64,000 nucleotides of DNA from Collimonas fungivorans Ter331. Lineage in GTDB: Bacteria; Pseudomonadota; Gammaproteobacteria; Burkholderiales; Burkholderiaceae_D. The position numbers were made by a program, and so were the translations under genes. Shown here in pieces: positions 11,230 through 31,519 of the stretch. The notes below the pieces were generated by a model. The model was not told the DNA's origin and made no database searches. It was given only the letters and a program-made list of their open reading frames with translations. How positions within the stretch are numbered: position 1 is the first letter of the stretch; every line of letters begins with the position of its first letter. Where the stretch lies: assembly GCF_000221045.1 (NCBI RefSeq), contig NC_015856.1, positions 2,474,986 to 2,538,985 of the forward strand, written 5' to 3'.

Positions 11230-13209
11230 ATGAATCGGAATTTTAGTGGATTAGCGTTAATTCTCAGCTTCGCCTGTTTTACTTCCAGCCTTGCCGTCGG
11301 CGCCACCGTCACCAGGCAAATACCCAGCAGCGGCACGGTCAAGATCCCTGCCACCACTGTCGGTGTCGACGGATTGTCCTCGCCTGAAACCTCACCGGTA
11401 TTTTCGAACGCGCCAGATCTTGCTGACGGTCCCACCGCTGCGGGTACTGCAGGGTTGACCGGCAAAAGCGGAACGCAAAGCACCACCAGCGTGCTGGCGC
11501 GGGTGGCGAAGTTCAAGATAAACCGCAGTATCGCCAGGACGCAGGGCAAAGGACAGTGGACCGAAGCAGTAGGCAGAGAGGCGCCCGACCGCCGGGTGCA
11601 AGCCAGTTTTGACGGCGAAAATTCACGCAACCAGCGGCTGGCAAGCAACGGCAACCAGTTTTCCATAGAACCGCCGGACCAGGGGCTGTGCGCCGGCAAC
11701 GGCTACGTCATGGAATCGCTGAATGACGTCATGAAGGTCTACAACCGCAAAGGCGTCGCATTGAGCGGCGATATTGCACTGAACGCGTTTTACGGCTATG
11801 CGCCGGCGATCAACCGCCAGGTTACGCCGCGTGTCTTTGGCCCGTCGATTACCGATCCGGCCTGCTATTTCGATCCGGATGTAAGACGCTGGTTTCACCT
11901 GGTGCTGACGCTGGACACCGATCCCGCCACTGGCGCGCAAACCGGCACCAACCATCTCGACCTTGCGGTCAGTTCGTCTGCCGATCCGCTCGGGAGCTGG
12001 ACGGTATACAAGATCGCCGTGCAGGATGACGGTACGCAAGGTACGCCCCAGCATGCAAATTGCCCATGCCTGGGCGATTATCCGCATATCGGCGCAGACG
12101 CCCATGGCATCTACCTGACAACCAATGAATTCCCGTTTTCCGGCGGCTTCAACAGCGCCCAGATATATGCCATATCGAAAAAAGCGTTGATCAGCGGCAG
12201 CACTTCGATACAAGTGGTGCAGCTGGACACGGCCGATTATCTGCTTGAAGGCAATCCGGGATTCACGGTATGGCCGGCAGTGTCGCCGGCCGGCGACTTT
12301 GAACGGAGCAACCGCGGCACCGAATACCTGCTGAGTTCAGTCGCGGTATTTTCCAATTCCGGCAACGACAATCGCCTGAGGGTATGGGCAATCGGCAATA
12401 CCAGGTCGCTGAACGACGCCGCGCCTGCGCTGACGCTTCTGCATAATGTCGTCAGCGTCGACAGCTATGGCGTGCCGCCTGCGATTCCGCAGAAAGCCGG
12501 CAGTGCGCCATTGCGAGACTGTCTGAACGACCGCAGCATGGCGACGCCGGCTGGCGTCGGCTGCTGGAATTACCTGACCAGTGTCCTGCCGGCAGTTCCG
12601 GAAACGCTGGCGGACCTGGATCCGAACGATTCGCGCATGCAGCAAGTGTTTTTCACCGGCGACCGCCTGTATGGCGCGCTCGATACCGTCGTCAATGTCG
12701 CTGGTCAAGAGCAGACCGGCATTGCCTACTACGTGCTCAATCCCGCCGTCTCGGCTGGCCAGGTTGGCGCATCCGTGACCAAGCAGGGCCAGGTGGCGCT
12801 TGCCGGCAACAGCGTTACGCGGCCGGCCATAGCGGCGCTGCCTAACGGCAAAGGCGTGATCGGCTTTACCGTCGCCGGCGCCGATCACTACCCGAGCGCC
12901 GGTTATATCCATTTCAGCCGTGACCGCGGACACAGGGGCGAAACGGTCAAGATCATTGCCAACGGACTCGGGCCAGACGACGAATTCGGCGCCTATAACG
13001 CCTTTGGTACGCCGCGCAGCCGGTGGGGCGATTACGGCGCGGCGGCAGTCGACGGCAACGATATCTGGCTAGGCTCCGAATACATTGCGCATGGCTGCAC
13101 GCTGGCGCAATACGCAAGTCTTGCCGACCCGGTAGCGCAGTTCAGCTGCAACGGTAGCCGCGTCGCCCTGACCAACTGGGCCACGCGCATCAGCAGGGTC
13201 ACGCCCTGA
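11230..13209 (+). CDS. Large secreted protein of unknown function, possible beta-propeller
   Basis: This 659-residue protein has a clear signal peptide (MNRNFSGLALILSFACFTS, cleavage after VGA). GGAGAAG precedes the ATG at 11230; the frame is open further upstream only through a TTG at 11218. From about residue 125 the chain has repeated blade-like segments such as GYVMESLNDVMKVYNR, ACYFDPDVRRWFHL and CLGDYPHIGADAHGIYLT, and many paired Cys. This suggests an extracellular beta-rich, possibly propeller-like, disulfide-bonded protein. I do not recognise a catalytic motif. It stands alone between the Tad pair and a LysR gene. Confidence 0.6.
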   Translation: MNRNFSGLALILSFACFTSSLAVGATVTRQIPSSGTVKIPATTVGVDGLSSPETSPVFSNAPDLADGPTAAGTAGLTGKSGTQSTTSVLARVAKFKINRSIARTQGKGQWTEAVGREAPDRRVQASFDGENSRNQRLASNGNQFSIEPPDQGLCAGNGYVMESLNDVMKVYNRKGVALSGDIALNAFYGYAPAINRQVTPRVFGPSITDPACYFDPDVRRWFHLVLTLDTDPATGAQTGTNHLDLAVSSSADPLGSWTVYKIAVQDDGTQGTPQHANCPCLGDYPHIGADAHGIYLTTNEFPFSGGFNSAQIYAISKKALISGSTSIQVVQLDTADYLLEGNPGFTVWPAVSPAGDFERSNRGTEYLLSSVAVFSNSGNDNRLRVWAIGNTRSLNDAAPALTLLHNVVSVDSYGVPPAIPQKAGSAPLRDCLNDRSMATPAGVGCWNYLTSVLPAVPETLADLDPNDSRMQQVFFTGDRLYGALDTVVNVAGQEQTGIAYYVLNPAVSAGQVGASVTKQGQVALAGNSVTRPAIAALPNGKGVIGFTVAGADHYPSAGYIHFSRDRGHRGETVKIIANGLGPDDEFGAYNAFGTPRSRWGDYGAAAVDGNDIWLGSEYIAHGCTLAQYASLADPVAQFSCNGSRVALTNWATRISRVTP

Positions 13210-19840: not shown

Positions 19841-20683
19841 ATGGGGTACGCAGTGGGTCAATATCTTCAAGGCGTTGCGCAGTATGAAAAAGATTTTCAA
19901 GGGGTTCAAAAAAAGAATTCCGTTTTTGACAGCTTCGGCGCAAAGCCGTTTGATCCGCTCGAAATGCTGCGTGATGAATTGCGATACAAGCGCCTGCGCC
20001 GAAACATCGGCGTGGCTGCAAAGCTGCACGAAATCAGTGTGGCGGCGGGTCGCAAAAATCATAACGTCATCATGGTCACGTTGACCTACGTTGTTGATAG
20101 CTGGGAGAAAAAGCACATGGGCGCGTATCTAACCCATGTGCGTAATTGGATGTTTCGCCGGACTGGCGAAAAGCTTAAATACGTATGGGTCGCTGAGATG
20201 CAAAAGCGCGGCGTTATTCATTACCACGTTCTGTACTGGATGCCTCGCGGCATAACGATGCCAAAGGCCGATAAGCAAGGCTGGTGGCCGCACGGATCGA
20301 CCAGAACAGAAAAGGCTAATAAGCCTGTTGCATACGCGATGAAATACGCGTCAAAACTGGATTCGAAGGAGGGCTTTCCTGATGGAGCTCACACATATGG
20401 TGTTGGTGGCCTCGTTGAAGCTGATCGTAGTGCTCGGCGCTGGTTTAATTTTCCTGGCTTTATTAAGGCGCGTGCGGCGGTCGGCGATTGCTGGAAGCGA
20501 TCAGCAGGTGGTGGGTGGCTTGAATTGGGAACAGGCCAGTTATGGCCTTCGGAGTGGGGCCTTTGCCTTGTCACGAAGCTCCGGCTGTCTATCGTACGTC
20601 TCCACGACCACGGGCGTCCCCTTGATGTGGGAGGGCCGTTTTCATGGTTGAAATCAAACCTCAAGGTCGAGCAAATAGCTTGA
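19841..20683 (+). CDS. Inovirus rolling-circle replication protein (Rep/pII-like)
   Basis: This 280-residue HUH endonuclease has a metal-binding HYH triad at residues 127-129 in GVIHYHVLYW. The candidate catalytic Tyr residues are Y165 and Y169 in AYAMKYASK, and motif I is NVIMVTLTY near residue 75. It nicks the plus-strand origin to start rolling-circle replication. It follows the ssDNA-binding gene by 43 bp. Two strong hairpins shortly downstream are origin candidates. Confidence 0.85.
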   Translation: MGYAVGQYLQGVAQYEKDFQGVQKKNSVFDSFGAKPFDPLEMLRDELRYKRLRRNIGVAAKLHEISVAAGRKNHNVIMVTLTYVVDSWEKKHMGAYLTHVRNWMFRRTGEKLKYVWVAEMQKRGVIHYHVLYWMPRGITMPKADKQGWWPHGSTRTEKANKPVAYAMKYASKLDSKEGFPDGAHTYGVGGLVEADRSARRWFNFPGFIKARAAVGDCWKRSAGGGWLELGTGQLWPSEWGLCLVTKLRLSIVRLHDHGRPLDVGGPFSWLKSNLKVEQIA

Positions 20684-23416: not shown

Positions 23417-24274
23417 ATGGCTGACTATTTGGTGTACGGAAAAAAAGGCAGCGGTAAAAGTCTCGTGGTTGTTGGTCGTATTAAGGATGCTCTGTTGGCG
23501 GGAAAGAAGGTTGCGACTAACTTGAACCTGAAACTGGATAAGCTCCTGCCGATTGGTACTCGGGGAGTGATCTGTTACCGGCTTCCTGATCGTCCGACCA
23601 TTGAGGACATGGAAGCTATCGGCATTGGGTCTGACAAGCTTGATGAGGCTACGTATGGCCTTGTGGTGCTCGATGAAATGGCTACGTGGATGAATTCTCG
23701 GTCTTGGGCTGACAAAGGCCGTCAGGCGCTTCTAGACTGGTTTGTGCATTCTCGAAAAATGCGGTGGGATTCGTACATGCTATGCCAGTCGCCAAATCAG
23801 ATTGATAAGCAGGTGCGTGAATCGCTGGTTGAGCAAACTGTGGCTTGTAAGCGCCTGGACAAAATTAGGATTCCATTTCTTGGTGCGTTGACGAAGCATT
23901 TTTTCGGTGTCGAGCTTAGGGCGCCAAAAATCCATCTAGCCATCGTGAAGTACGGTGTCGGTAACGACGCTGTGTTGAGTGACCGTTGGACATATCGCGG
24001 CAAGAATCTGTATGCGGCTTACGATACCGAGCAAAAATTTAGTCCTACTTATTCGGATGGTATTTTTTCTTACCTGTCGCCGTGGCATGTTGCTGGTCGC
24101 TACTGCAAGCTTTCGATGGGGTGGCGTGACTACATCAAGCGTTTCTTTAATCCGGCGCCTTCAAGGCTTCCTGCTAAGCCTTTGCATCCAGTTGCGCGGC
24201 TTGTGTCGCAATTGCCTGCCTCTGAACGTGTGCGGCATTTTCAACGGTTGGAACAATTGGGGGCTTTCAAATGA
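23417..24274 (+). CDS. Zot-like assembly ATPase (pI) without membrane segment
   Basis: This 285-residue P-loop protein has Walker A GKKGSGKS at residues 8-15 and Walker B LVVLDEM near 82-88, followed by a Zot/pI-type region (SRKMRWDSYMLCQSPNQID). pI proteins drive extrusion of the phage through the inner membrane. Unlike the prophage 2 homologue, no membrane helix or periplasmic domain follows the ATPase domain. These parts may be supplied by the next gene, which overlaps by 4 bp. Confidence 0.82.
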   Translation: MADYLVYGKKGSGKSLVVVGRIKDALLAGKKVATNLNLKLDKLLPIGTRGVICYRLPDRPTIEDMEAIGIGSDKLDEATYGLVVLDEMATWMNSRSWADKGRQALLDWFVHSRKMRWDSYMLCQSPNQIDKQVRESLVEQTVACKRLDKIRIPFLGALTKHFFGVELRAPKIHLAIVKYGVGNDAVLSDRWTYRGKNLYAAYDTEQKFSPTYSDGIFSYLSPWHVAGRYCKLSMGWRDYIKRFFNPAPSRLPAKPLHPVARLVSQLPASERVRHFQRLEQLGAFK

Positions 24275-24657
24275 TGGATTCAGATGACGTGAAATTTGTG
24301 TTTCGTACTTGGCTTTTGCTGGTGCTGATGGCCTGTCTTGTTGGCGTTGCCTTTGCTGATGAGCTGCCGGCCGATTTGCCCGAAGTGCCTGTTAAGGCTG
24401 TGGCGAAGGAAAAGCCTAAGGGGGATACACTTCGCGTTGAAAAGGTCAGCAGGCCATTGAGTGATCAGACTATGATGCCTGAGCAGCTGCTTGTTTATCT
24501 CAGCTCTAAGCGCTCTTTTGCGCCGGCTCCTGGCTGTATGCCTAACGGTTTTTTGACATGCCAAGGGCAGGGCGCTCATGTTGACGGCGTGCCGGCAGCA
24601 ACAGATGAGGGGCGTTATCGTCCTCGCCCTGGAACTATTCGCGGGTATCACGAATAA
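24271..24657 (+). CDS. Membrane/secreted partner of Zot, hypothetical
   Basis: This 128-residue protein has one N-terminal hydrophobic helix (TWLLLVLMACLVGVAFA) and a Pro/Lys-rich exported part with two Cys (PGCMPNGFLTCQG). It overlaps the ATPase gene by ATGA. Position and topology suggest it is the periplasmic piece that in other phages is fused to the Zot ATPase. The 51-bp repeat element begins 3 bp after its stop. Confidence 0.55.
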   Translation: MMDSDDVKFVFRTWLLLVLMACLVGVAFADELPADLPEVPVKAVAKEKPKGDTLRVEKVSRPLSDQTMMPEQLLVYLSSKRSFAPAPGCMPNGFLTCQGQGAHVDGVPAATDEGRYRPRPGTIRGYHE

Positions 24658-24659
24658 AT

Positions 24660-24710
24660 GTGACGTACCAGGTGTGACTAACCCTGGACAAGTCACAGTA
24701 GCTCGGTCAC
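24660..24710. repeat. 51-bp boxed dyad, copy 1
   Basis: GTGAC boxes at 24660 and 24674 are followed by GTCAC boxes at 24692 and 24706. Spacers are 9, 13 and 9 bases, so the element is exactly symmetric in box placement. Spacer sequences differ from the other copies. It lies outside any gene, directly after the Zot partner. Aligned with the reverse complement of copy 3, it matches at 39 of 51 positions. Confidence 0.85.
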
Positions 24711-24718
24711 AATGAGAC

Positions 24719-25588
24719 ATGGAAAATTCAATCTCGCAAGCTGATTTCGCTTTCTGTGACCCATCGATCGTGACTCGGCGCCGGCAGGTCACTCCAGCTC
24801 AGTCACAGCTGGTCTTGTCCATATTTCCCGGTATCGATCTTTTTGGCCTCGGCTTCGAACAAGAAGGCTTTCCAGTCGTACGCGGTCCCGATCCTCTCTT
24901 TGGTGGTGATATTCGCGCTTTTACTATCCCCGGCGGCAAGTTTGACGGCATCATTGGTGGCCCCCCATGTCCTGATTTTTCGAAAGCACGCAGATCTGCC
25001 CCTACCGGCTACGGTCTCGAAATGATTGGCGAATACGTTAGGGTTGTCACTCAGGGGCAGCCGATGTGGTGGTTGATGGAGAATGTTCCAGGCGTGCCTG
25101 ATGTTCGCATTGAGGGTTATTCACACCAGCGGATTGATCTGAATGCCCGTGAGGTCGGTCTGGATCAGAACCGGCATCGGCATTTCCAGTTTGGGCATCG
25201 TGACGGTTTGCTGATTTCTATCGACAGGGGTGCAAAATCGACTCTATTTGAGCCGTGTTGCACGGCATCGGAGGGGAGTCAGATAGGGCGCAGGGACTGG
25301 GACAAATTCTGCCGCCTTCAAGGGTTGAAGGGCGCTCTTCAACTTGACCAGTTGACGCTGTCGGGCAGGTATCGTGCTGTTGGTAATGCTGTGCCGTTGC
25401 CTATGTCTCGCGCTCTGGCACGTGCAATTTTGAATGCTCAGTCTCCTAATGACGTTCGGTTGTGCGGGTGCGGCTGCGGACGGCCCGTTGTCGGCAAGTC
25501 GGTATATGCCATTCCTGCCTGTCGCAAGCGCATGTCTCGCCGAAGTGTGACCGACCAGGCACAGCTGGTGTCCGCCGAGTCACTGTGA
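24719..25588 (+). CDS. Compact DNA cytosine-C5 methyltransferase
   Basis: This 289-residue protein shows the C5-methyltransferase motifs: SIFPGIDLFGLGFEQEGF (I, residue 34), GGPPCPDFS with the catalytic Cys at 84 (IV), MENVPGV (VI, 120), QNRHR (VIII, 150) and RAVGNAVPLP (X, 219). Only about 45 residues lie between motif VIII and the motif IX region, so the target-recognition region is very short. A C-terminal cluster C-x-C-x-C (249-253) plus C268 may bind metal. Copy 2 of the 51-bp element lies inside codons 13-30, so the true start could be later. The recognition site is unknown. It is an accessory gene in the phage. Confidence 0.82.
   Translation: MENSISQADFAFCDPSIVTRRRQVTPAQSQLVLSIFPGIDLFGLGFEQEGFPVVRGPDPLFGGDIRAFTIPGGKFDGIIGGPPCPDFSKARRSAPTGYGLEMIGEYVRVVTQGQPMWWLMENVPGVPDVRIEGYSHQRIDLNAREVGLDQNRHRHFQFGHRDGLLISIDRGAKSTLFEPCCTASEGSQIGRRDWDKFCRLQGLKGALQLDQLTLSGRYRAVGNAVPLPMSRALARAILNAQSPNDVRLCGCGCGRPVVGKSVYAIPACRKRMSRRSVTDQAQLVSAESL
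24756..24806. repeat. 51-bp boxed dyad, copy 2
   Basis: GTGAC at 24756 and 24770 and GTCAC at 24788 and 24802 again have 9-13-9 spacing. The spacers (for example CCATCGATC) are unrelated to copy 1. It lies 45 bp after copy 1 and inside the first codons of the methyltransferase frame. Confidence 0.85.
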
Positions 25589-25635
25589 CTGTGCCGGCGT
25601 GACTGGTCCAGGATCTGTCACACCTGGTCGGTCAC
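25585..25635. repeat. 51-bp boxed dyad, copy 3
   Basis: GTGAC at 25585 and 25599 and GTCAC at 25617 and 25631 have the same 9-13-9 spacing. It begins on the stop codon of the methyltransferase. In reverse complement its first 19 bases differ from copy 1 at only two positions, so copies 1 and 3 bracket the gene as terminal inverted repeats. A decayed further copy may start at 25547 (GTGAC at 25547 and GTCAC at 25579 remain). Confidence 0.85.
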
Positions 25636-25691: not shown

Positions 25692-26003
25692 ATGGAAATT
25701 TCCACAACTGAGATAGTGATTCTGTTGGTCGGCGCGCTAATGTGGCTAATCGGTTGGCTATACGGTCGTAAGCAAAGCGGTGTGTCTTCGCCGACCCAAA
25801 GCCGTCCATCGCGATTGTCGCCAAATAGACATTTCAAACCTGGGCCGCCTGATCGCACGGATGAGTTATTGCGTGCGTTGTATGGCGAAAAAGCGAAAGC
25901 TGAGCGTCTAATTGAATTTGAAGTGCAGCGGATGCCTGGTATATCTAGGGCGGAGGCTGTAAGTCGTGCGCTAGAACGGTTAATGGATGATCGGCGGCGC
26001 TAA
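25692..26003 (+). CDS. Hypothetical phage protein with one membrane helix
   Basis: This 103-residue protein has an N-terminal membrane helix (IVILLVGALMWLIGWLYG), a basic Ser/Pro-rich linker and a C-terminal helical part (RAEAVSRALERLMDDRRR). AGGGGG stands five bases before the ATG. Nothing ties it to a known family. It is the last plus-strand gene of prophage 1 and converges on the distal regulator. Confidence 0.55.
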   Translation: MEISTTEIVILLVGALMWLIGWLYGRKQSGVSSPTQSRPSRLSPNRHFKPGPPDRTDELLRALYGEKAKAERLIEFEVQRMPGISRAEAVSRALERLMDDRRR

Positions 26004-27064: not shown

Positions 27065-27949
27065 CTAGAATGGACAGGTATCGATCAACGGCCCATCATG
27101 CGGCGCTGTAGCAATCCAGAAGACTCCCAAACCGTTATTGCACCACGTTTGAGCGCCAGCTAGCCCAAACTCCCGGGCGATCTCAAAACCGATCTGGACG
27201 GCATGCAGCATGGTATGCGCACAGACACGCCAGCTATTCATCACAGGGATCACGATCCCGCGCGACCGGAAATAACGCTTTTGATTTAGGTCACGGCAGT
27301 CCATCAACTTGCCGCAATATTTGGCAATGTACTCAGCCAGCTTGTGAGCGCCGTTACGGCCGAAACCAAACTTACTTGGATCACGTACATTCACTTGTCC
27401 CATTTGCTCACCAGACTGGCCAAGACCGAGTATCGACTGCCACACCGAACGCAGCAGTCTGTAATCCTGTCGACCGCTAACAGCCACATGGAAATGCAAC
27501 GCGCCCCGCTTTTGCTCCTCAATAACCGCGACGTAGTGAAAAGCCTTGTGCTTGCTCAAACGCCTTGTAAAGGCTTTCCAGTGCTTGAGTGCGGTCTCAC
27601 GATCAATCATGTTTTCCCGATACGTCAGCGTCACCATGCGGTCAGCGCCAATCTCCTTGCAGCACAGCCGGACTTTCTGCTTTGCGCGCTTGCCAGCATC
27701 CTCCTCATTGGCTTCACGCTTCTCCGAAGCACCGCGCTTTGCATGCGGCACAGGCAGCGAATCCCGGCCCACAAAAAACTTATCCTTAGTGACTGTTATC
27801 TCAGTCTGACCATTCGCGAAAATGCGCTGGCGCGCCGTGTAGGTGTCTTGCCAGCCGTTACCGTCATCAGTCCACCATTCCGGCTTTTCTTGAGGGGTTG
27901 TTACGAAAGTGCTTGACGATTCGTTCAAATCGGAGTGGAATTGCGGCAT
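27065..27949 (-). CDS. Inovirus rolling-circle replication protein (Rep/pII-like)
   Basis: This 294-residue HUH endonuclease has motif I MVTLTYREN near residue 105, the metal triad HFH at 152-154 in GALHFHVAV, and candidate catalytic Tyr residues Y207 and Y211 in EYIAKYCGK. AGGAGTACCG precedes the ATG. It differs strongly from the prophage 1 Rep, so the two phages should use different origins. A short antisense transcript may cover its start. Confidence 0.85.
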   Translation of the reverse strand: MPQFHSDLNESSSTFVTTPQEKPEWWTDDGNGWQDTYTARQRIFANGQTEITVTKDKFFVGRDSLPVPHAKRGASEKREANEEDAGKRAKQKVRLCCKEIGADRMVTLTYRENMIDRETALKHWKAFTRRLSKHKAFHYVAVIEEQKRGALHFHVAVSGRQDYRLLRSVWQSILGLGQSGEQMGQVNVRDPSKFGFGRNGAHKLAEYIAKYCGKLMDCRDLNQKRYFRSRGIVIPVMNSWRVCAHTMLHAVQIGFEIAREFGLAGAQTWCNNGLGVFWIATAPHDGPLIDTCPF

Positions 27950-28018
27950 TCGGTACTCCTGCTACGACAGGTTTATCGGACGGCCCTGCAAGTGTTTCGA
28001 TCACCTGCAGGGCTTTTT
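27913..28018 (+). ncRNA. Candidate antisense RNA over the rep start
   Basis: On the strand opposite rep, TTGACG (27913-27918) and TGGAAT (27936-27941) are 17 bases apart. They are followed about 70 bp later by a terminator, GCCCTGCAAG / CCTGCAGGGC plus TTTTT (27983-28018). A transcript from about 27948 would be antisense to the rep start codon region and ribosome site, like copy-number control RNAs of rolling-circle plasmids. No plus-strand gene explains the terminator. The promoter match is modest. Confidence 0.4.
27983..28018 (+). terminator. Intrinsic terminator upstream of rep, opposite strand
   Basis: A 10-bp stem with one mismatch (GCCCTGCAAG at 27983-27992, CCTGCAGGGC at 28004-28013) is followed by TTTTTCTTTT. 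It points away from rep, and no protein gene ends here. Confidence 0.65.
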
Positions 28019-28342
28019 CTTTTCTACTTCAAAAACTGAATTTCTGAACACCCTACTTTTTACGGCCGCAAATGACAATCGGCTGGAAACCCTTTATTTG
28101 CCTCATGTTCTTAAGTGTCCCAGATACAAGTTTAGCGGCGCTTCGCGCCGCGCTTGGTGCGCTACGCTCCCCATCGCGACCCGCCCCGCCGCTACCCTAA
28201 AAATCAACACATAAGAACAACATCAAAAGCGGCCTTACAGGGAGCGGTCGACTTAACCGAGGCATCACCAGCACCACACGCTTTCAATAGTCACCAAGAC
28301 GCCATCTCAGTGGTCTATGCGGGCCCTGCGGCCCACACCCCG
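28019..28342. other. Prophage 2 intergenic region, candidate origin
   Basis: No gene is seen between the rep leader and the RHH gene. A GC-rich perfect hairpin GCGGCGC-TTC-GCGCCGC lies at 28135-28151, followed by CGCTTGGTGCGCTACGC-type inverted elements. This is the only long gap inside prophage 2 and is the best place for the plus-strand origin and packaging signal. Confidence 0.45.
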
Positions 28343-28606
28343 CTACCTTTTACGCAATAGCTGCGATCGCAGCAGTTTTTCAATCACGGCGCTCTTGGTT
28401 AAATCCTTAAAACGCAAATACTCATTGAACAGATTCACCAGATCCTCTGGCAAATCCACCGTGAACACAACCCGGCCAGCACGTTCACGTTGTAATCTTT
28501 TTCGCTCTGCGCTTGTCATTGCGCGGCCAGTCGCCGGACGCCCTCGAGGACGTTTCTCAGCCAGCAGATCGATAGTCACAGAATCATGGTGATCCTTCAT
28601 TTTCAC
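28343..28606 (-). CDS. Ribbon-helix-helix DNA-binding protein
   Basis: This 87-residue protein has a central Arg-rich segment (ATGRAMTSAERKRLQRER) followed by VVFTVDLPEDLVNLFNEYLRF. The latter is a beta-strand plus helix-helix pattern of the RHH (Arc/MetJ-like) fold. It is placed after Zot and before rep on the same strand. A GTGAC-AA-GTCAC palindrome lies 35 bp upstream and may be its operator. It probably regulates rep or its own gene. Confidence 0.6.
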   Translation of the reverse strand: MKMKDHHDSVTIDLLAEKRPRGRPATGRAMTSAERKRLQRERAGRVVFTVDLPEDLVNLFNEYLRFKDLTKSAVIEKLLRSQLLRKR

Positions 28607-28640
28607 ACCCAGATATGTTTACTCGAGTCAGAATATTTAT

Positions 28641-28654
28641 CGTGACAAGTCACG
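28641..28654. promoter_or_regulatory. Palindrome CGTGAC-AA-GTCACG
   Basis: This inverted repeat with 6-bp arms and a 2-bp centre sits between the Zot stop and the RHH start. It uses the same GTGAC/GTCAC box as the 51-bp elements of prophage 1, but with a different spacing. Confidence 0.5.
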
Positions 28655-28655
28655 T

Positions 28656-29771
28656 TTATTTAGAACCAGCCGAGCGGCCAGTGCGCTTACCAAGGACTCC
28701 ATAACCATCCTCATCCAGCGTAAAAACGGAAGATCCAGAACCTCTCTCAGATCTTGATAAAGCCGCGGAACCAGCAGGACTAGCTGAAGCAACCTGTTGA
28801 TGATTCTGACCACCGTGATCGTCAAAATCAACAAAGTACCCACGTGCCACAATATCGCGGCAAAGTAGCTCAGGCACGGCCATAGGCGTAGCCTGCTGAG
28901 TAAAACAATCACAACGCTTTTCATTTGCAACACAAGCAACGGGCACAGGCGCCGTAGTCGGTTTCGTAACCTCGTCATACCGTGGCGCCGTCTGCGGCAG
29001 ACCAGTGACACGCGGCACACGCTCAAATAAATACTGCTTCGCATCACCAACAGCATTTAGGTACGACGCTTTCTGGCCAGATGCACCAGCAGGAGCGCTT
29101 GCGCCAGAAGACGAACCGGCAGCACCAGTAGAAGCGGCATCCTCAGCCTTTACGGAACGCTGCTTGTATTTATTAAACGAGTAATAGCCAGCAATCGGCA
29201 CCGCTGCCACAAACAAAATAGCGAGTATCAATTTGGCCGGAATACTGCGTTTAACAGTGTGAACCTCAGCCGATTTATAGAGCCCAAAACTTTCTTTTGG
29301 AAAGGAAAATTTATGCAAGATGGCATTTTTCTGGCCCGACTCTTTATCAGGACTTAAATTGGCAGACGGCCATTCCCAAATGTTAGAACGTTGCAAGCCG
29401 AATTTACGAATAGCATGCAAGTGACGACCGCAGAGATTACGAACAAAATTATCAACCAAACTTGGATGTTGAGTAAGCAGGAAAATATCGTAACCGCTAT
29501 GCCGATGCACAGCTAAATCCTGATAGTACTTAGGGAGCGTCGAACCATTCGGTTTTTTCGGAAAAACAAACTGGGCCTCATCAATGACGATGAAAGAACC
29601 TATCGGAAGTGAAGCCCACTCGTCAGCCTTAAACTCGGTCCACGGCAACAACAAATCCTTGATGCCAGAATAATAGACATCCCTCCCCTCTTTTTCAGCG
29701 AGCGCTTTCAAGTAGGAAATCAGATAAAGCGTTTTGCCATGCCCCGGCAACCCGGTAATGATCGTAATCAT
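28656..29771 (-). CDS. Zot-like assembly ATPase (pI) with membrane anchor
   Basis: This 371-residue protein has Walker A GLPGHGKT at residues 7-14 and Walker B IVIDEA at 61-66. The Zot-type segment RHSGYDIFLLTQHPSLVD follows, with one membrane helix near 180-200 (LILAILFVAAVPIAGYY). An Ala/Ser/Gly-rich periplasmic tail contains Cys residues (CVANEKRCDCF). This is the full-length architecture that drives virion export. It overlaps the DUF2523 gene by 4 bp. Confidence 0.88.
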   Translation of the reverse strand: MITIITGLPGHGKTLYLISYLKALAEKEGRDVYYSGIKDLLLPWTEFKADEWASLPIGSFIVIDEAQFVFPKKPNGSTLPKYYQDLAVHRHSGYDIFLLTQHPSLVDNFVRNLCGRHLHAIRKFGLQRSNIWEWPSANLSPDKESGQKNAILHKFSFPKESFGLYKSAEVHTVKRSIPAKLILAILFVAAVPIAGYYSFNKYKQRSVKAEDAASTGAAGSSSGASAPAGASGQKASYLNAVGDAKQYLFERVPRVTGLPQTAPRYDEVTKPTTAPVPVACVANEKRCDCFTQQATPMAVPELLCRDIVARGYFVDFDDHGGQNHQQVASASPAGSAALSRSERGSGSSVFTLDEDGYGVLGKRTGRSAGSK

Positions 29772-30070
29772 TTGAGCTGCACCTTTTTCAAACTACCCGA
29801 CAGCAATTTCATAGCAAGAGAAATTGAAACCGCAGAAAAAATAATAGTGATTGCCTTATCCAACCACAAATAACCAATCAAACTAAGAGCATCGCCCGGA
29901 ATACTATTGACGCGATCAAAAACGGCCTGCTGCATATAACCGATAGCGACATCAAGACCCTTGTAGGTAACAAATCCGATACCGAGAGCAATCACAGCAC
30001 GCCATACAAGCGATGCCATCGCAGTGGCAAGAGCACCCATCAACGCAGGTAGAAAAACGGCTAAGAACAT
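29768..30070 (-). CDS. DUF2523 membrane protein (pVI-like minor coat)
   Basis: This 100-residue protein has three hydrophobic helices (LPALMGALATAMASLVW, AVIALGIGFVTYKGL, TIIFSAVSISLAMKLLSG). It lies between the adsorption protein and Zot, the same position as its prophage 1 counterpart, and probably caps the virion tip with pIII. It overlaps Zot by ATGA. Confidence 0.75.
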   Translation of the reverse strand: MFLAVFLPALMGALATAMASLVWRAVIALGIGFVTYKGLDVAIGYMQQAVFDRVNSIPGDALSLIGYLWLDKAITIIFSAVSISLAMKLLSGSLKKVQLK

Positions 30071-30073
30071 GAT

Positions 30074-31519
30074 TTACCCCTGAAGAATTGACTTACTAAC
30101 GATTAAATAAGCAACGAGCAACGCACAAGAAACAATCACATATCGCAACGGCAAAAGGTTCTGACAAACAGCGGAAAGATGGATAGGCACATCATGACCA
30201 GCGAATGACAAATTACGATCAGACAAACATAAACCCCCACCCAAAAACCCGCTTTGGTCCAACTTGTCCTGACTTAAATCGACAATGTCACCGGCCTTAG
30301 TTTGATCAATTTGAGATTGCATAGGATCAGCGCCACCGAGCAATTTATTTCCCAAATCTTTAGACGCCGATGCGACCAAATTGGCGCACGTGTCATCCCG
30401 CATCTTGCGCAGAATTGCACCCTGAATAGCATCGCCACTAATAGTTGTATTCGACGTAGCGCCATTGCAACCAGTACCACCTACCTGAGAGTTTGAGCAA
30501 ACATTCAATTCAGGGTGCTTAGCGCAAAAATCATCACCTGGAGGATCACTGTTTGTCGCATCCTTGCCATCGCTCTTTCCGGGCGCGCCATCAGCGTTAT
30601 TTGAGGTGCTTCCCGATACAGTACAACTCTTACCACCGGCAGATGAAACGGTGCACGTAGTAGTGATCGTGGTGGAGCTACCATCCTTGTTGCCGGACGT
30701 AGAACTGTTCGTTGTAGTCGTAGAGCCGTCAGAGTTATTTGTGGTAACAGGAGGCGCGTTCGTAGTGGTGTTTTTGGTATTACCCGAACCAGTACCATTA
30801 CCAGAACACATCGCGGTCCCAGCAGAATCAGAACCAATATTTGATGTACCAGCTGGACAAGAATTATCCGGATTCGGTGATGGTGCCGTCATTGGCTGAT
30901 CGGACTTTGCGGGCTCAGTTGTCGGAACAACCGGTTTCGGAGCAGTTGGTCCCGGAGTATCAGGCGCATAACTGCCCGTACCGCCGTAGTTATATTCATA
31001 ACCGCAATACCAGTTAAACACCCCCGCCACGCTTGTAGGTTGCCCCTGACAGTCGTCATCCAACCCCGTGATGTTGATATCGCACCCATTGATCTTCTTC
31101 GGCCACACATTGGCTTTTTTTCCTGTACCTGCAAACAAGGCATCATGGTGAGATCCGGCAGGATCTGAATAGCACTGAGTCTGCACAGGCGGTCCGCACG
31201 CGCCTTTGGAGTCAACAACATTTGGCGCTGTACAAACACTTCCAGCGACCAAACCAGTTGAAGCGCCATACGTCGTGCCACGCTCAACCCAAGTGCACGA
31301 ACGAGTGTTACCGGTGTTAACCGTCATCACAAAATTAGTCATCAAAGTTGGCTGAGCATAACTCTGACAAGCCGTAACAGCATCCGGATACAAACCATTC
31401 GAACTACCACCACTGGTCGAACCCGTCCAGCTATAGCTAGCATGGGCAAAATTATAAAAACACAGCAGCATCACAATGATGCAAAAACGGGACAGAGCTC
31501 TCAACAGAAAAATATTCAT
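30074..31519 (-). CDS. Inovirus adsorption protein (pIII-like)
   Basis: This 481-residue protein has a signal peptide (LLRALSRFCIIVMLLC to AHAS) and a Cys-rich N-terminal receptor domain (residues 28-175). A long Thr/Ser/Asn/Gly linker follows at about 180-330, then a Cys-containing C-terminal domain and a terminal membrane helix (YVIVSCALLVAYLIVSK). Unlike the prophage 1 protein, the N-terminal domain contains WTGSTSGGSSNGLYPDA. It should decide host range. Confidence 0.8.
   Translation of the reverse strand: MNIFLLRALSRFCIIVMLLCFYNFAHASYSWTGSTSGGSSNGLYPDAVTACQSYAQPTLMTNFVMTVNTGNTRSCTWVERGTTYGASTGLVAGSVCTAPNVVDSKGACGPPVQTQCYSDPAGSHHDALFAGTGKKANVWPKKINGCDINITGLDDDCQGQPTSVAGVFNWYCGYEYNYGGTGSYAPDTPGPTAPKPVVPTTEPAKSDQPMTAPSPNPDNSCPAGTSNIGSDSAGTAMCSGNGTGSGNTKNTTTNAPPVTTNNSDGSTTTTNSSTSGNKDGSSTTITTTCTVSSAGGKSCTVSGSTSNNADGAPGKSDGKDATNSDPPGDDFCAKHPELNVCSNSQVGGTGCNGATSNTTISGDAIQGAILRKMRDDTCANLVASASKDLGNKLLGGADPMQSQIDQTKAGDIVDLSQDKLDQSGFLGGGLCLSDRNLSFAGHDVPIHLSAVCQNLLPLRYVIVSCALLVAYLIVSKSILQG

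What the first reader, a model, noticed from the sequence alone, without database searches (positions are those of the whole stretch)
24660..25635. Methyltransferase bracketed by a new 51-bp element, GTGAC-N9-GTGAC-N13-GTCAC-N9-GTCAC, in three exact-spacing copies
Seen: twelve 5-bp boxes at 24660, 24674, 24692, 24706; 24756, 24770, 24788, 24802; 25585, 25599, 25617, 25631. Box spacing is identical and symmetric in all copies while most spacer bases differ. Copies 1 and 3 are also inverted repeats of each other (39 of 51 positions) around the gene. Such fixed geometry with free spacers suggests selection for protein contacts, or for a folded single strand with two stem pairs and bulges like an integron attC site. 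The gene could be a mobile cassette in a single-stranded phage, or the boxes may be an operator set.
Basis: partly seen in the sequence, partly recalled or inferred. Interest (0 to 1): 0.85.

Follow-up and report, generated by a model that had tools for sequence, protein, structure and literature searches.

The report
Methyltransferase-linked arrays of restriction sites
Around a small DNA-methylating enzyme, very different bacterial viruses carry rows of a short tag (GTGAC), each usually followed at a fixed distance by one of many different restriction-enzyme sites, which may be a DNA-level device by which the virus handles host restriction.

Summary
In detail: three exact 51-bp elements, none in 100 shuffles. 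But the 51-mer is a composite. The basic unit is Y-GTGAC-N4-C, and in the window's clade two units face each other with boxes 32 bp apart. The C at +9 mostly lies inside a palindromic restriction-site-like word (CCWGG, GCWGC, TCGA, CCGG, GCGC, AGCT and others) that differs from box to box. The arrays accompany one family of short phage C5 methyltransferases with a C-terminal Cys finger: 33 of 40 finger-bearing loci have at least 3 units, against 1 of 34 scored without a finger, and that one is a contig that ends inside the finger. They occur in inoviruses, tailed phages and a corticovirus. A related Collimonas inovirus keeps boxes but lacks the gene; another has a different gene in the slot. 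An attC-like fold is not supported. Best explanation: the enzyme's own finger binds GTGAC and places the catalytic domain on the +9 C, so the arrays are cis-acting binding and methylation sites, perhaps autoregulatory and restriction-sensing. Association and anatomy are shown; binding, methylation and purpose are inferred. The listings of ten paper searches show no description.

The parts
24660..24710 (.). 51-bp element, copy 1 (four GTGAC/GTCAC boxes; words CCAGG, CCTGG/CCAGG centre, AGCT)
24756..24806 (.). 51-bp element, copy 2, inside the 5' part of the methyltransferase reading frame (words ATCGAT, GGCGCC, GCCGGC, AGCT)
25585..25635 (.). 51-bp element, copy 3; its first box supplies the TGA stop codon of the methyltransferase (words GCCGGC, CCAGG/CCTGG centre, CCAGG)
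24719..25588 (+). C5-cytosine DNA methyltransferase, 289 aa, catalytic motifs present, short target-recognition region
   Evidence: PF00145 E 3.1e-19; alignment; model mean pLDDT 80.6; best PDB match M.HaeIII
25463..25543 (+). C-terminal Cys-rich finger CGCGCGRPVVGKSVYAIPACRKRMSRR (residues 249-275), proposed GTGAC-binding domain
   Evidence: no Pfam model matched it
24271..24657 (+). left flanking gene (orf128), shared with the Collimonas inoviruses that lack the methyltransferase at this slot
25692..26003 (+). right flanking gene (orf103), shared with the Collimonas inoviruses that lack the methyltransferase at this slot

Best explanation
The elements are arrays of cis-acting sites for the methyltransferase they surround. 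The C-terminal Cys finger binds Y-GTGAC in double-stranded DNA and places the catalytic domain on the cytosine four bases further on. That cytosine is usually part of a palindromic restriction-type site. In the window's clade two such units face each other with boxes 32 bp (about three turns) apart; other clades often use direct repeats of 23-24 bp. The likely purpose is control: the enzyme sits on units around its own gene and at neighbouring gene boundaries and represses or tunes expression there. Host restriction or modification enzymes that compete for, or have already methylated, the same words would change that occupancy, so the phage would sense which restriction systems are present. 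Shown here: unit anatomy, fixed register, word lexicon, co-occurrence with the finger, dispersed units in larger phages. Inferred: binding by the finger (my estimate 0.85), methylation of the +9 C (0.65), regulation or sensing as the purpose (0.3).
For: Finger and units co-occur: of 80 methyltransferase loci, 33 of 40 with the canonical finger have at least 3 GTGAC-N4-C units, against 1 of 6 with a variant finger and 1 of 34 scored as without (that one, L093, is a contig that ends inside its finger); Fisher p 5e-13, near-duplicates not removed. C at +9 in 341 of 412 boxes at 41 loci, about 30% in 1520 other GTGACs; locus bootstrap 0.78-0.87, 35 of 40 loci with at least 4 boxes above 0.5. Six-mer palindromes at +7 to +12: 68 observed, 8.7 expected (z 21.5); between offsets 5 and 19 CCWGG starts at 8 or 9 in 103 of 106 cases and GCWGC at 8 in 28 of 34. 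The middle base is W: GCWGC 28 against GCCGC 2. The register also holds in clades with other geometry, 75 of 100. Dispersed units occur in the larger genomes that carry the finger enzyme (43 of 351 GTGACs with a word in register, shifted control 15.4) and not in genomes without it (18 of 564, control 29.6). Catalytic residues are invariant in 16 of 16 aligned sequences. In GXT1010 and L096 the array lies between a terminator-like site and the start of the gene. Precedent seen in passages of PMC3978073: M.SsoII holds a regulatory site with an extra domain while its methyltransferase domain is proposed to sit on flanking DNA, and it represses its own gene.
Against: No binding, methylome or expression data. 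32-bp pairs lie downstream of the gene in 20 and upstream in 12 of the 80 loci (counted), which fits a promoter operator poorly. Promoter-like matches inside copy 1 and just after copy 3 are near chance (4 found in the region, 1.9 expected), and none was found at the GXT1010 and L096 arrays. A single small enzyme cannot itself read a dozen different words, so their intactness needs another reader, which I assume to be host restriction enzymes; no call tests that. Sequence decay at +9 is only weakly in favour of methylation: with T at +9, 18 of 36 become words if read as C, against 2 of 19 for A and 2 of 16 for G, but the stricter test gives TG 5 against CA 3. Seven of 40 finger-bearing loci have fewer than 3 units. 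In five inoviruses only 4 of 81 distant GTGACs have a word in register (control 2.2), and in the nine other-geometry loci 9 of 139 (control 5.6).
Confidence: 0.45

Rival explanations
1. Mobile cassette: the methyltransferase is an accessory gene carried between box arrays that act as its ends, gained and lost by recombination between units or by an unknown recombinase.
For: In Collimonas sp. OK607 (L044, L154) the same left flank is followed by a 37-mer and a 51-mer and the right gene, without the methyltransferase; in L156 the slot between orf128 and orf103 holds a different gene and no array. Cassettes sit beside different genes in inoviruses. A fragment of the gene with units beside it remains in G143, and in L142 a gene that looks internally deleted lies between units (by eye). 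Arrays lie at both gene ends in many loci.
Against: Loss by slippage between short direct repeats would give the same picture. No recombinase, target duplication or constant end sequence was noticed; no systematic search for a recombinase was made. Units are also dispersed singly in larger phages, and mobility explains neither the +9 C nor the restriction-site words.
Confidence: 0.22
2. Protected restriction-site decoys: units concentrate many restriction sites that the tethered enzyme keeps methylated, so host restriction enzymes bind them without cutting.
For: In five inoviruses CCWGG is avoided outside the array regions (39 observed, 91-94 expected) while the arrays concentrate it, for example 6 of the 9 CCWGG sites of L003 in 240 bp.
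Against: 27 finger-bearing loci taken together, the inoviruses included, show no CCWGG avoidance outside arrays (838 observed, 672-844 expected), so restriction would hit other sites. Palindromes in general are somewhat avoided in all groups, also in phages without the finger. Methylated sites are usually poor ligands (recalled).
Confidence: 0.1
3. Operators for another phage or host regulator that recognises GTGAC; the methyltransferase is only a neighbour.
For: Gene-boundary location and helical phasing are typical of operators.
Against: Arrays follow one methyltransferase family through inoviruses, tailed phages and a corticovirus, and almost only its finger-bearing members. Other genes shared by all carriers were not searched for systematically.
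Confidence: 0.1
4. attC-like single-stranded recombination sites of an integron-like system.
For: Dyad symmetry of the 51-mer; arrays overlap stop codons; some copies fold strongly (L020 z -9.86, L038 z -5.07).
Against: The window copies do not fold clearly better than shuffles; direct-repeat clades; only one cargo family among the loci read; the fixed quantity is the 32-bp pair, not the stem.
Confidence: 0.03

Closest known systems
M.SsoII / M.Ecl18kI type autoregulated C5 methyltransferases (PMC3978073, passages seen)
   Same: A C5 methyltransferase with an extra DNA-binding domain; the extra domain holds a regulatory site while the methyltransferase domain is proposed to sit on flanking DNA; represses its own gene.
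   Different: There: N-terminal helix-turn-helix, one 15-bp operator, flanking DNA called non-specific, partner restriction enzyme. Here: C-terminal Cys finger, arrays at both gene ends and dispersed units, a catalogue of restriction-site palindromes in fixed register, no restriction enzyme among the ten window proteins scanned.
CfrBI-type control by methylation of the promoter (described in passages of PMC3978073)
   Same: A methylation site in the regulatory region could report enzyme activity.
   Different: CfrBI has a single own-specificity site; here many different words that one enzyme is unlikely to specify.
Stoperators of mycobacteriophages (PMC9283540, start of abstract in the listing)
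   Same: One phage-protein binding site repeated across a phage genome.
   Different: Stoperators bind a repressor; these units contain restriction-type words and go with a methyltransferase.
Multispecific C5 methyltransferases of SP-beta-like Bacillus phages (recalled, not from a call)
   Same: Phage C5 enzymes that deal with several restriction specificities, including CCWGG, CCGG and GGCC.
   Different: Those carry several target-recognition domains in a longer protein; this family has about 35 residues between motifs VIII and IX and the diversity lies in DNA.
Synthetic zinc-finger/methyltransferase memory circuit (PMC5458116, start of abstract in the listing)
   Same: Zinc finger, methyltransferase and methylation-sensitive control of the methyltransferase operon.
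   Different: Engineered.

Membership tests
Integron attC site / gene cassette | imperfect inverted repeat that folds into a stable single-strand hairpin | tested here: not met
   z -1.12, 0.28, -1.02 for the three window copies; of four stretches from other loci two fold strongly (L038, L020) and two do not (L012, L096); direct-repeat clades exist
Integron attC site / gene cassette | integron integrase and varied cargo | tested here: inconclusive
   one cargo family only among the loci read; genomes were not searched for an integrase
C5-cytosine DNA methyltransferase | PC, ENV and QxRxR catalytic motifs (motif names recalled) and the fold | tested here: met
   invariant in 16 of 16 aligned sequences; PF00145; Foldseek M.HaeIII E 1.2e-12
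Autoregulated C5 methyltransferase (M.SsoII type) | extra DNA-binding domain attached to the methyltransferase | tested here: inconclusive
   C-terminal Cys finger present and co-occurring with boxes; DNA binding not tested
Autoregulated C5 methyltransferase (M.SsoII type) | operator overlapping the promoter of the gene and repression shown | not testable with these tools
   promoter matches near chance or absent; 32-bp pairs more often downstream (20) than upstream (12 of 80 loci)
Autoregulated C5 methyltransferase (M.SsoII type) | part of a restriction-modification pair | tested here: inconclusive
   none of the ten window proteins scanned is a restriction enzyme by Pfam; not searched systematically
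CRISPR-like guide array | repeats transcribed in one direction with spacers matching targets by complementarity | tested here: not met
   boxes lie on both strands and in either orientation to the gene; the constant base is on the box strand, not at a constant palindromic partner; transcription itself not tested
Transposon or MITE ends | constant terminal sequence with target duplication | tested here: inconclusive
   left edge the same and right edge different between window and L044 by eye; no duplication seen

The most novel reading that the evidence does not exclude
The array is the specificity store of a methyltransferase that has almost no target-recognition domain of its own: each unit holds one restriction site in catalytic register, units are gained and lost whole (L096 against L051), and the set of words in the array sets which host restriction systems the phage senses or is shielded from. 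Specificity would then be written in DNA rather than in the protein.
Probability: 0.08. Interest if true: 0.97.

Novelty: categorically new. Interest (0 to 1): 0.8.

Why it matters
A phage gene that travels with a catalogue of restriction sites, each at the same distance from what is probably the enzyme's binding box, has no described counterpart in the listings of the ten paper searches made. If the best reading holds, phages have an operator type that reports which restriction systems a host has; if the boldest reading holds, methylation specificity can be stored in DNA arrays. Both can be tested with one purified enzyme and one methylome. The case also gives a candidate DNA site to a small Cys finger without a Pfam model. 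If the purpose proves to be plain autoregulation, the system would shrink to an unusual variant of M.SsoII-type control.

Tried and rejected
attC-like folding: the window copies fold about like shuffles. RNA guide: box orientation relative to the gene is not conserved and the constant C is on the box strand. Library selected for diversity: word classes per array are not more but slightly less diverse than random draws (28 loci with at least 5 word-bearing boxes; 130 distinct in sum, 137.1 expected, sd 3.8, 4% of shuffles as low). Global protection by word: in 27 loci, word classes present in a phage's own array are neither clearly more nor less avoided elsewhere in it (mean log ratio difference 0.048, 85% of permutations at or below). 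Decay as proof of methylation: favours it, the stricter does not. Genome hits: of 28 genome stretches with the exact 51-mer, 6 hold the methyltransferase, L023 and L044 hold arrays without it, and 20 look by eye like tandem heptamer repeats and were set aside; of 14 viral stretches, 9 hold it and 5 do not, two of which (L008, L009) are of the heptamer kind. For the register statistics I used 41 loci: 35 viral and 6 genome loci. Six finger-bearing loci were left out before that count (L080, L082, L083, L087, with few boxes, and L089, L100 as near-duplicates), so 83% describes loci that mostly have arrays. Boxes on both strands were counted, so a central word shared by two facing boxes counts twice. 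The 16 records were chosen because they carry units or lie in carriers. Near-identical loci were not removed.

Full report
WHAT IS THERE. The three 51-bp elements are exactly as described and occur nowhere else in the 5,186,898-bp host genome. The host is a Collimonas: genomes of its genus hold the same loci as titled Collimonas records; that it is C. fungivorans Ter331 is recalled from the genome size. The elements surround and overlap a 289-aa C5 methyltransferase gene (PF00145) in an inovirus prophage, with a replication protein at 19841-20683 and a Zot/pI gene at 23417-24274. A fourth unit, GTGAC-N27-GTCAC, lies at 25547-25583. In the whole genome the 37-bp pattern has 8 places, 7 of them here, and the reversed control has 3. 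Of 392 genomes of the family, 4 encode a relative at E up to 1e-30, all in the same genus.

THE UNIT. An exact scan of viral contigs gave 14 stretches with the 51-mer and one of 84,980 species genomes 28. A homologous methyltransferase lies in 9 of the 14 and 6 of the 28. Twenty of the other genome hits look by eye like tandem heptamer repeats in which 14 equals twice 7, a coincidence of spacing. Mapping all boxes at 17 methyltransferase loci showed that the constant feature is a GTGAC and a GTCAC 32 bp apart: 83 pairs near the genes, with 46 and 18 bp next (28 and 26), against 34 pairs at all distances from -60 to 60 elsewhere in the same loci, 8 of them at 32. The 51-mer is two such pairs interleaved by 14 bp; interleaves of 16, 17 and 19 bp occur with the 32-bp distance kept (L020, L005, L004).

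THE SPACERS ARE NOT FREE. Over 412 boxes at 41 loci, with both strands read, the base at +9 is C in 341, against about 30% of 1520 other GTGACs, and the base before the box is C or T in about 89%. Resampling by locus gives 0.78-0.87 for C at +9. Around that C usually stands a palindrome. Permuting columns, which keeps base composition at each position, gives 8.7 six-mer palindromes at +7 to +12 where 68 are seen (z 21.5); 5-mers at +8 to +12, 89 against 43.7; 5-mers at +9 to +13, 89 against 41.0. With a fixed list of short words, 265 of 412 boxes have one; many of the rest show other palindromes by eye. The words are CCWGG, GCWGC, TCGA, CCGG, GCGC, AGCT, GGCC, ACGT and longer forms such as ATCGAT, GCCGGC and GGCGCC. 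Between offsets 5 and 19, CCWGG starts at 8 or 9 in 103 of 106 cases. The middle base is W: GCWGC 28 against GCCGC 2. Near-words are few: C?W?G is C.G in 43 of 49 and ?CWG? is C.G in 60 of 69. Four-base palindromes in the registers of GATC (C last) or CATG (C first) are not enriched.

THE ENZYME. The window protein and fifteen relatives (49-86% identity to it) align with the C5 catalytic residues invariant. The stretch between motifs VIII and IX is only about 35 residues, so the usual target-recognition domain is nearly absent (motif names and the comparison are recalled). A C-terminal finger C-x-C-x-C-G-R ... A-C-R-K-R follows; Pfam gave no match for it. The AlphaFold model has mean pLDDT 80.6, with blocks above 90 over residues 241-270; the best solved structures are M.HaeIII and M.HhaI, then other C5 methyltransferases including DNMT3A. 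A profile scan kept the best 80 of 226 viral loci. Of the 80, 40 have the canonical finger, and 33 of these have at least three GTGAC-N4-C units near the gene; of 6 with a variant finger 1 does; of 34 scored without a finger 1 does, and that one (L093) is a contig that ends within its finger. More distant clades (39-50% identity) carry the same unit in other arrangements, most often direct repeats of 23 or 24 bp, some irregular; the C at +9 holds there too (75 of 100). In L086, L089 and L093 24-bp units lie in frame in the linker before the finger.

WHERE ELSE. Carriers include inoviruses (Zot/pI neighbours in L003, L012 and L013), tailed phages (terminase in L014, L152 and L148, portal in L148; in L014 no methyltransferase is held in the locus), the Pseudoalteromonas corticovirus GXT1010 and a Methylomonas plasmid. 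In larger genomes units are also dispersed: record G392 has 15 in 36 kb with 0 of the control pattern (the 16 records were chosen because they carry units or lie in carriers), several of them starting so that the TGA of the box is a stop codon. Away from the gene, GTGACs with a word in register are 43 of 351 in 22 finger-bearing loci (shifted register 15.4; 9 of the 43 are in L061), 4 of 81 in five inoviruses (2.2), 9 of 139 in nine other-geometry loci (5.6), and 18 of 564 in 33 loci without the finger (29.6).

GAIN AND LOSS. Of 15 Collimonas genomes searched for the right-hand gene, 4 have it, at 5 places, the window included. In L154, by eye the same sequence as L044 from Collimonas sp. OK607, the left flank is followed by a 37-mer with one decayed inner box, one base and a 51-mer close to copy 3, and then by the right gene; copy 1 and the methyltransferase are absent. 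In L156 both flanking genes are present with another gene between them, and only a few boxes without a listed word. L155 and L157 have other neighbours and no boxes in the stretch read. G143 keeps a fragment of the gene with units. L096 and L051 share four units in order, and L096 has two more between them. The gene is therefore an accessory one whose arrays can outlive it; deletion between units would explain L044 without a recombinase.

MECHANISM. The box follows the finger through unrelated phages, and the +9 C is constant while the register of the word shifts around it. The simplest reading is that the finger holds GTGAC and the catalytic pocket meets the cytosine four bases on. M.SsoII is a precedent for such a two-site hold (PMC3978073, passages). 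That the words are mostly whole restriction sites, of many kinds, is not explained by the enzyme alone. I take host restriction and modification enzymes to be the other readers, so that the arrays are operators whose occupancy reports the restriction systems of the cell; this step is inference. Results against it: 32-bp pairs lie downstream of the gene in 20 and upstream in 12 of 80 loci; promoter matches are near chance or absent; decay at +9 is weak evidence. In five inoviruses CCWGG is avoided outside arrays, 39 seen against 91-94 expected, and other palindromes too (for example 123 non-lexicon six-mers against 160-164), so the enzyme does not free those genomes from restriction pressure; 27 finger-bearing loci together show no CCWGG avoidance, and palindromes in general are avoided in phages without the finger as well. 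Whether words in a phage's own array are treated differently elsewhere in its genome is undecided.

NOVELTY. Ten searches of open-access full text were made; the listed papers (at most 15 per search, titles and starts of abstracts seen) show nothing on GTGAC arrays, this finger or restriction-site arrays beside a phage methyltransferase. Most subscription papers are not held. The anatomy fails tested features of attC sites and guide arrays and goes well beyond the autoregulated methyltransferases described in PMC3978073. I rate it categorically new on anatomy, with the purpose open; if only autoregulation is found it would be a new variant of a known kind.

Noticed in passing
window 27065-31519 (-): A second inovirus-like region (replication protein PF23343, Zot PF05707) lies next to the first in the opposite orientation.
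   Followed up: no
L021, L022, L024-L027, L029-L035, L037, L039-L043, L045; also L008, L009: The 51-bp pattern also matches what look by eye like tandem heptamer GTGACnn repeats in Chloroflexi, Blastocatellia and other MAGs, sometimes on several contigs of one genome; a different repeat family.
   Followed up: partly
L135 1186-1262, L136 2003-2079, L145 4754-4830: Arrays of GTGAC-N7-GTCAC with period about 20 bp in viral contigs, no finger motif found in the locus.
   Followed up: no
L151 14541-15509 (-); by eye also L142, L090, L005: A second DNA methyltransferase (phrog_56 for L151) lies beside the finger-bearing C5 methyltransferase in tailed phages.
   Followed up: partly
L086, L089, L093, before the finger: 24-bp (8-codon) GTGAC units in frame in the linker between methyltransferase domain and finger, with differing copy number.
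   Followed up: partly
L036 2743-3988: The cassette follows an 87-aa gene and a short frame that resembles, by eye, the start of a zot gene, with the end of a reversed zot gene on the other side; it may have interrupted a zot gene.
   Followed up: partly
L150 (G395) 311-427 and 12501-12614: Two arrays that hold near-identical units in inverted order about 12 kb apart in one viral contig.
   Followed up: no
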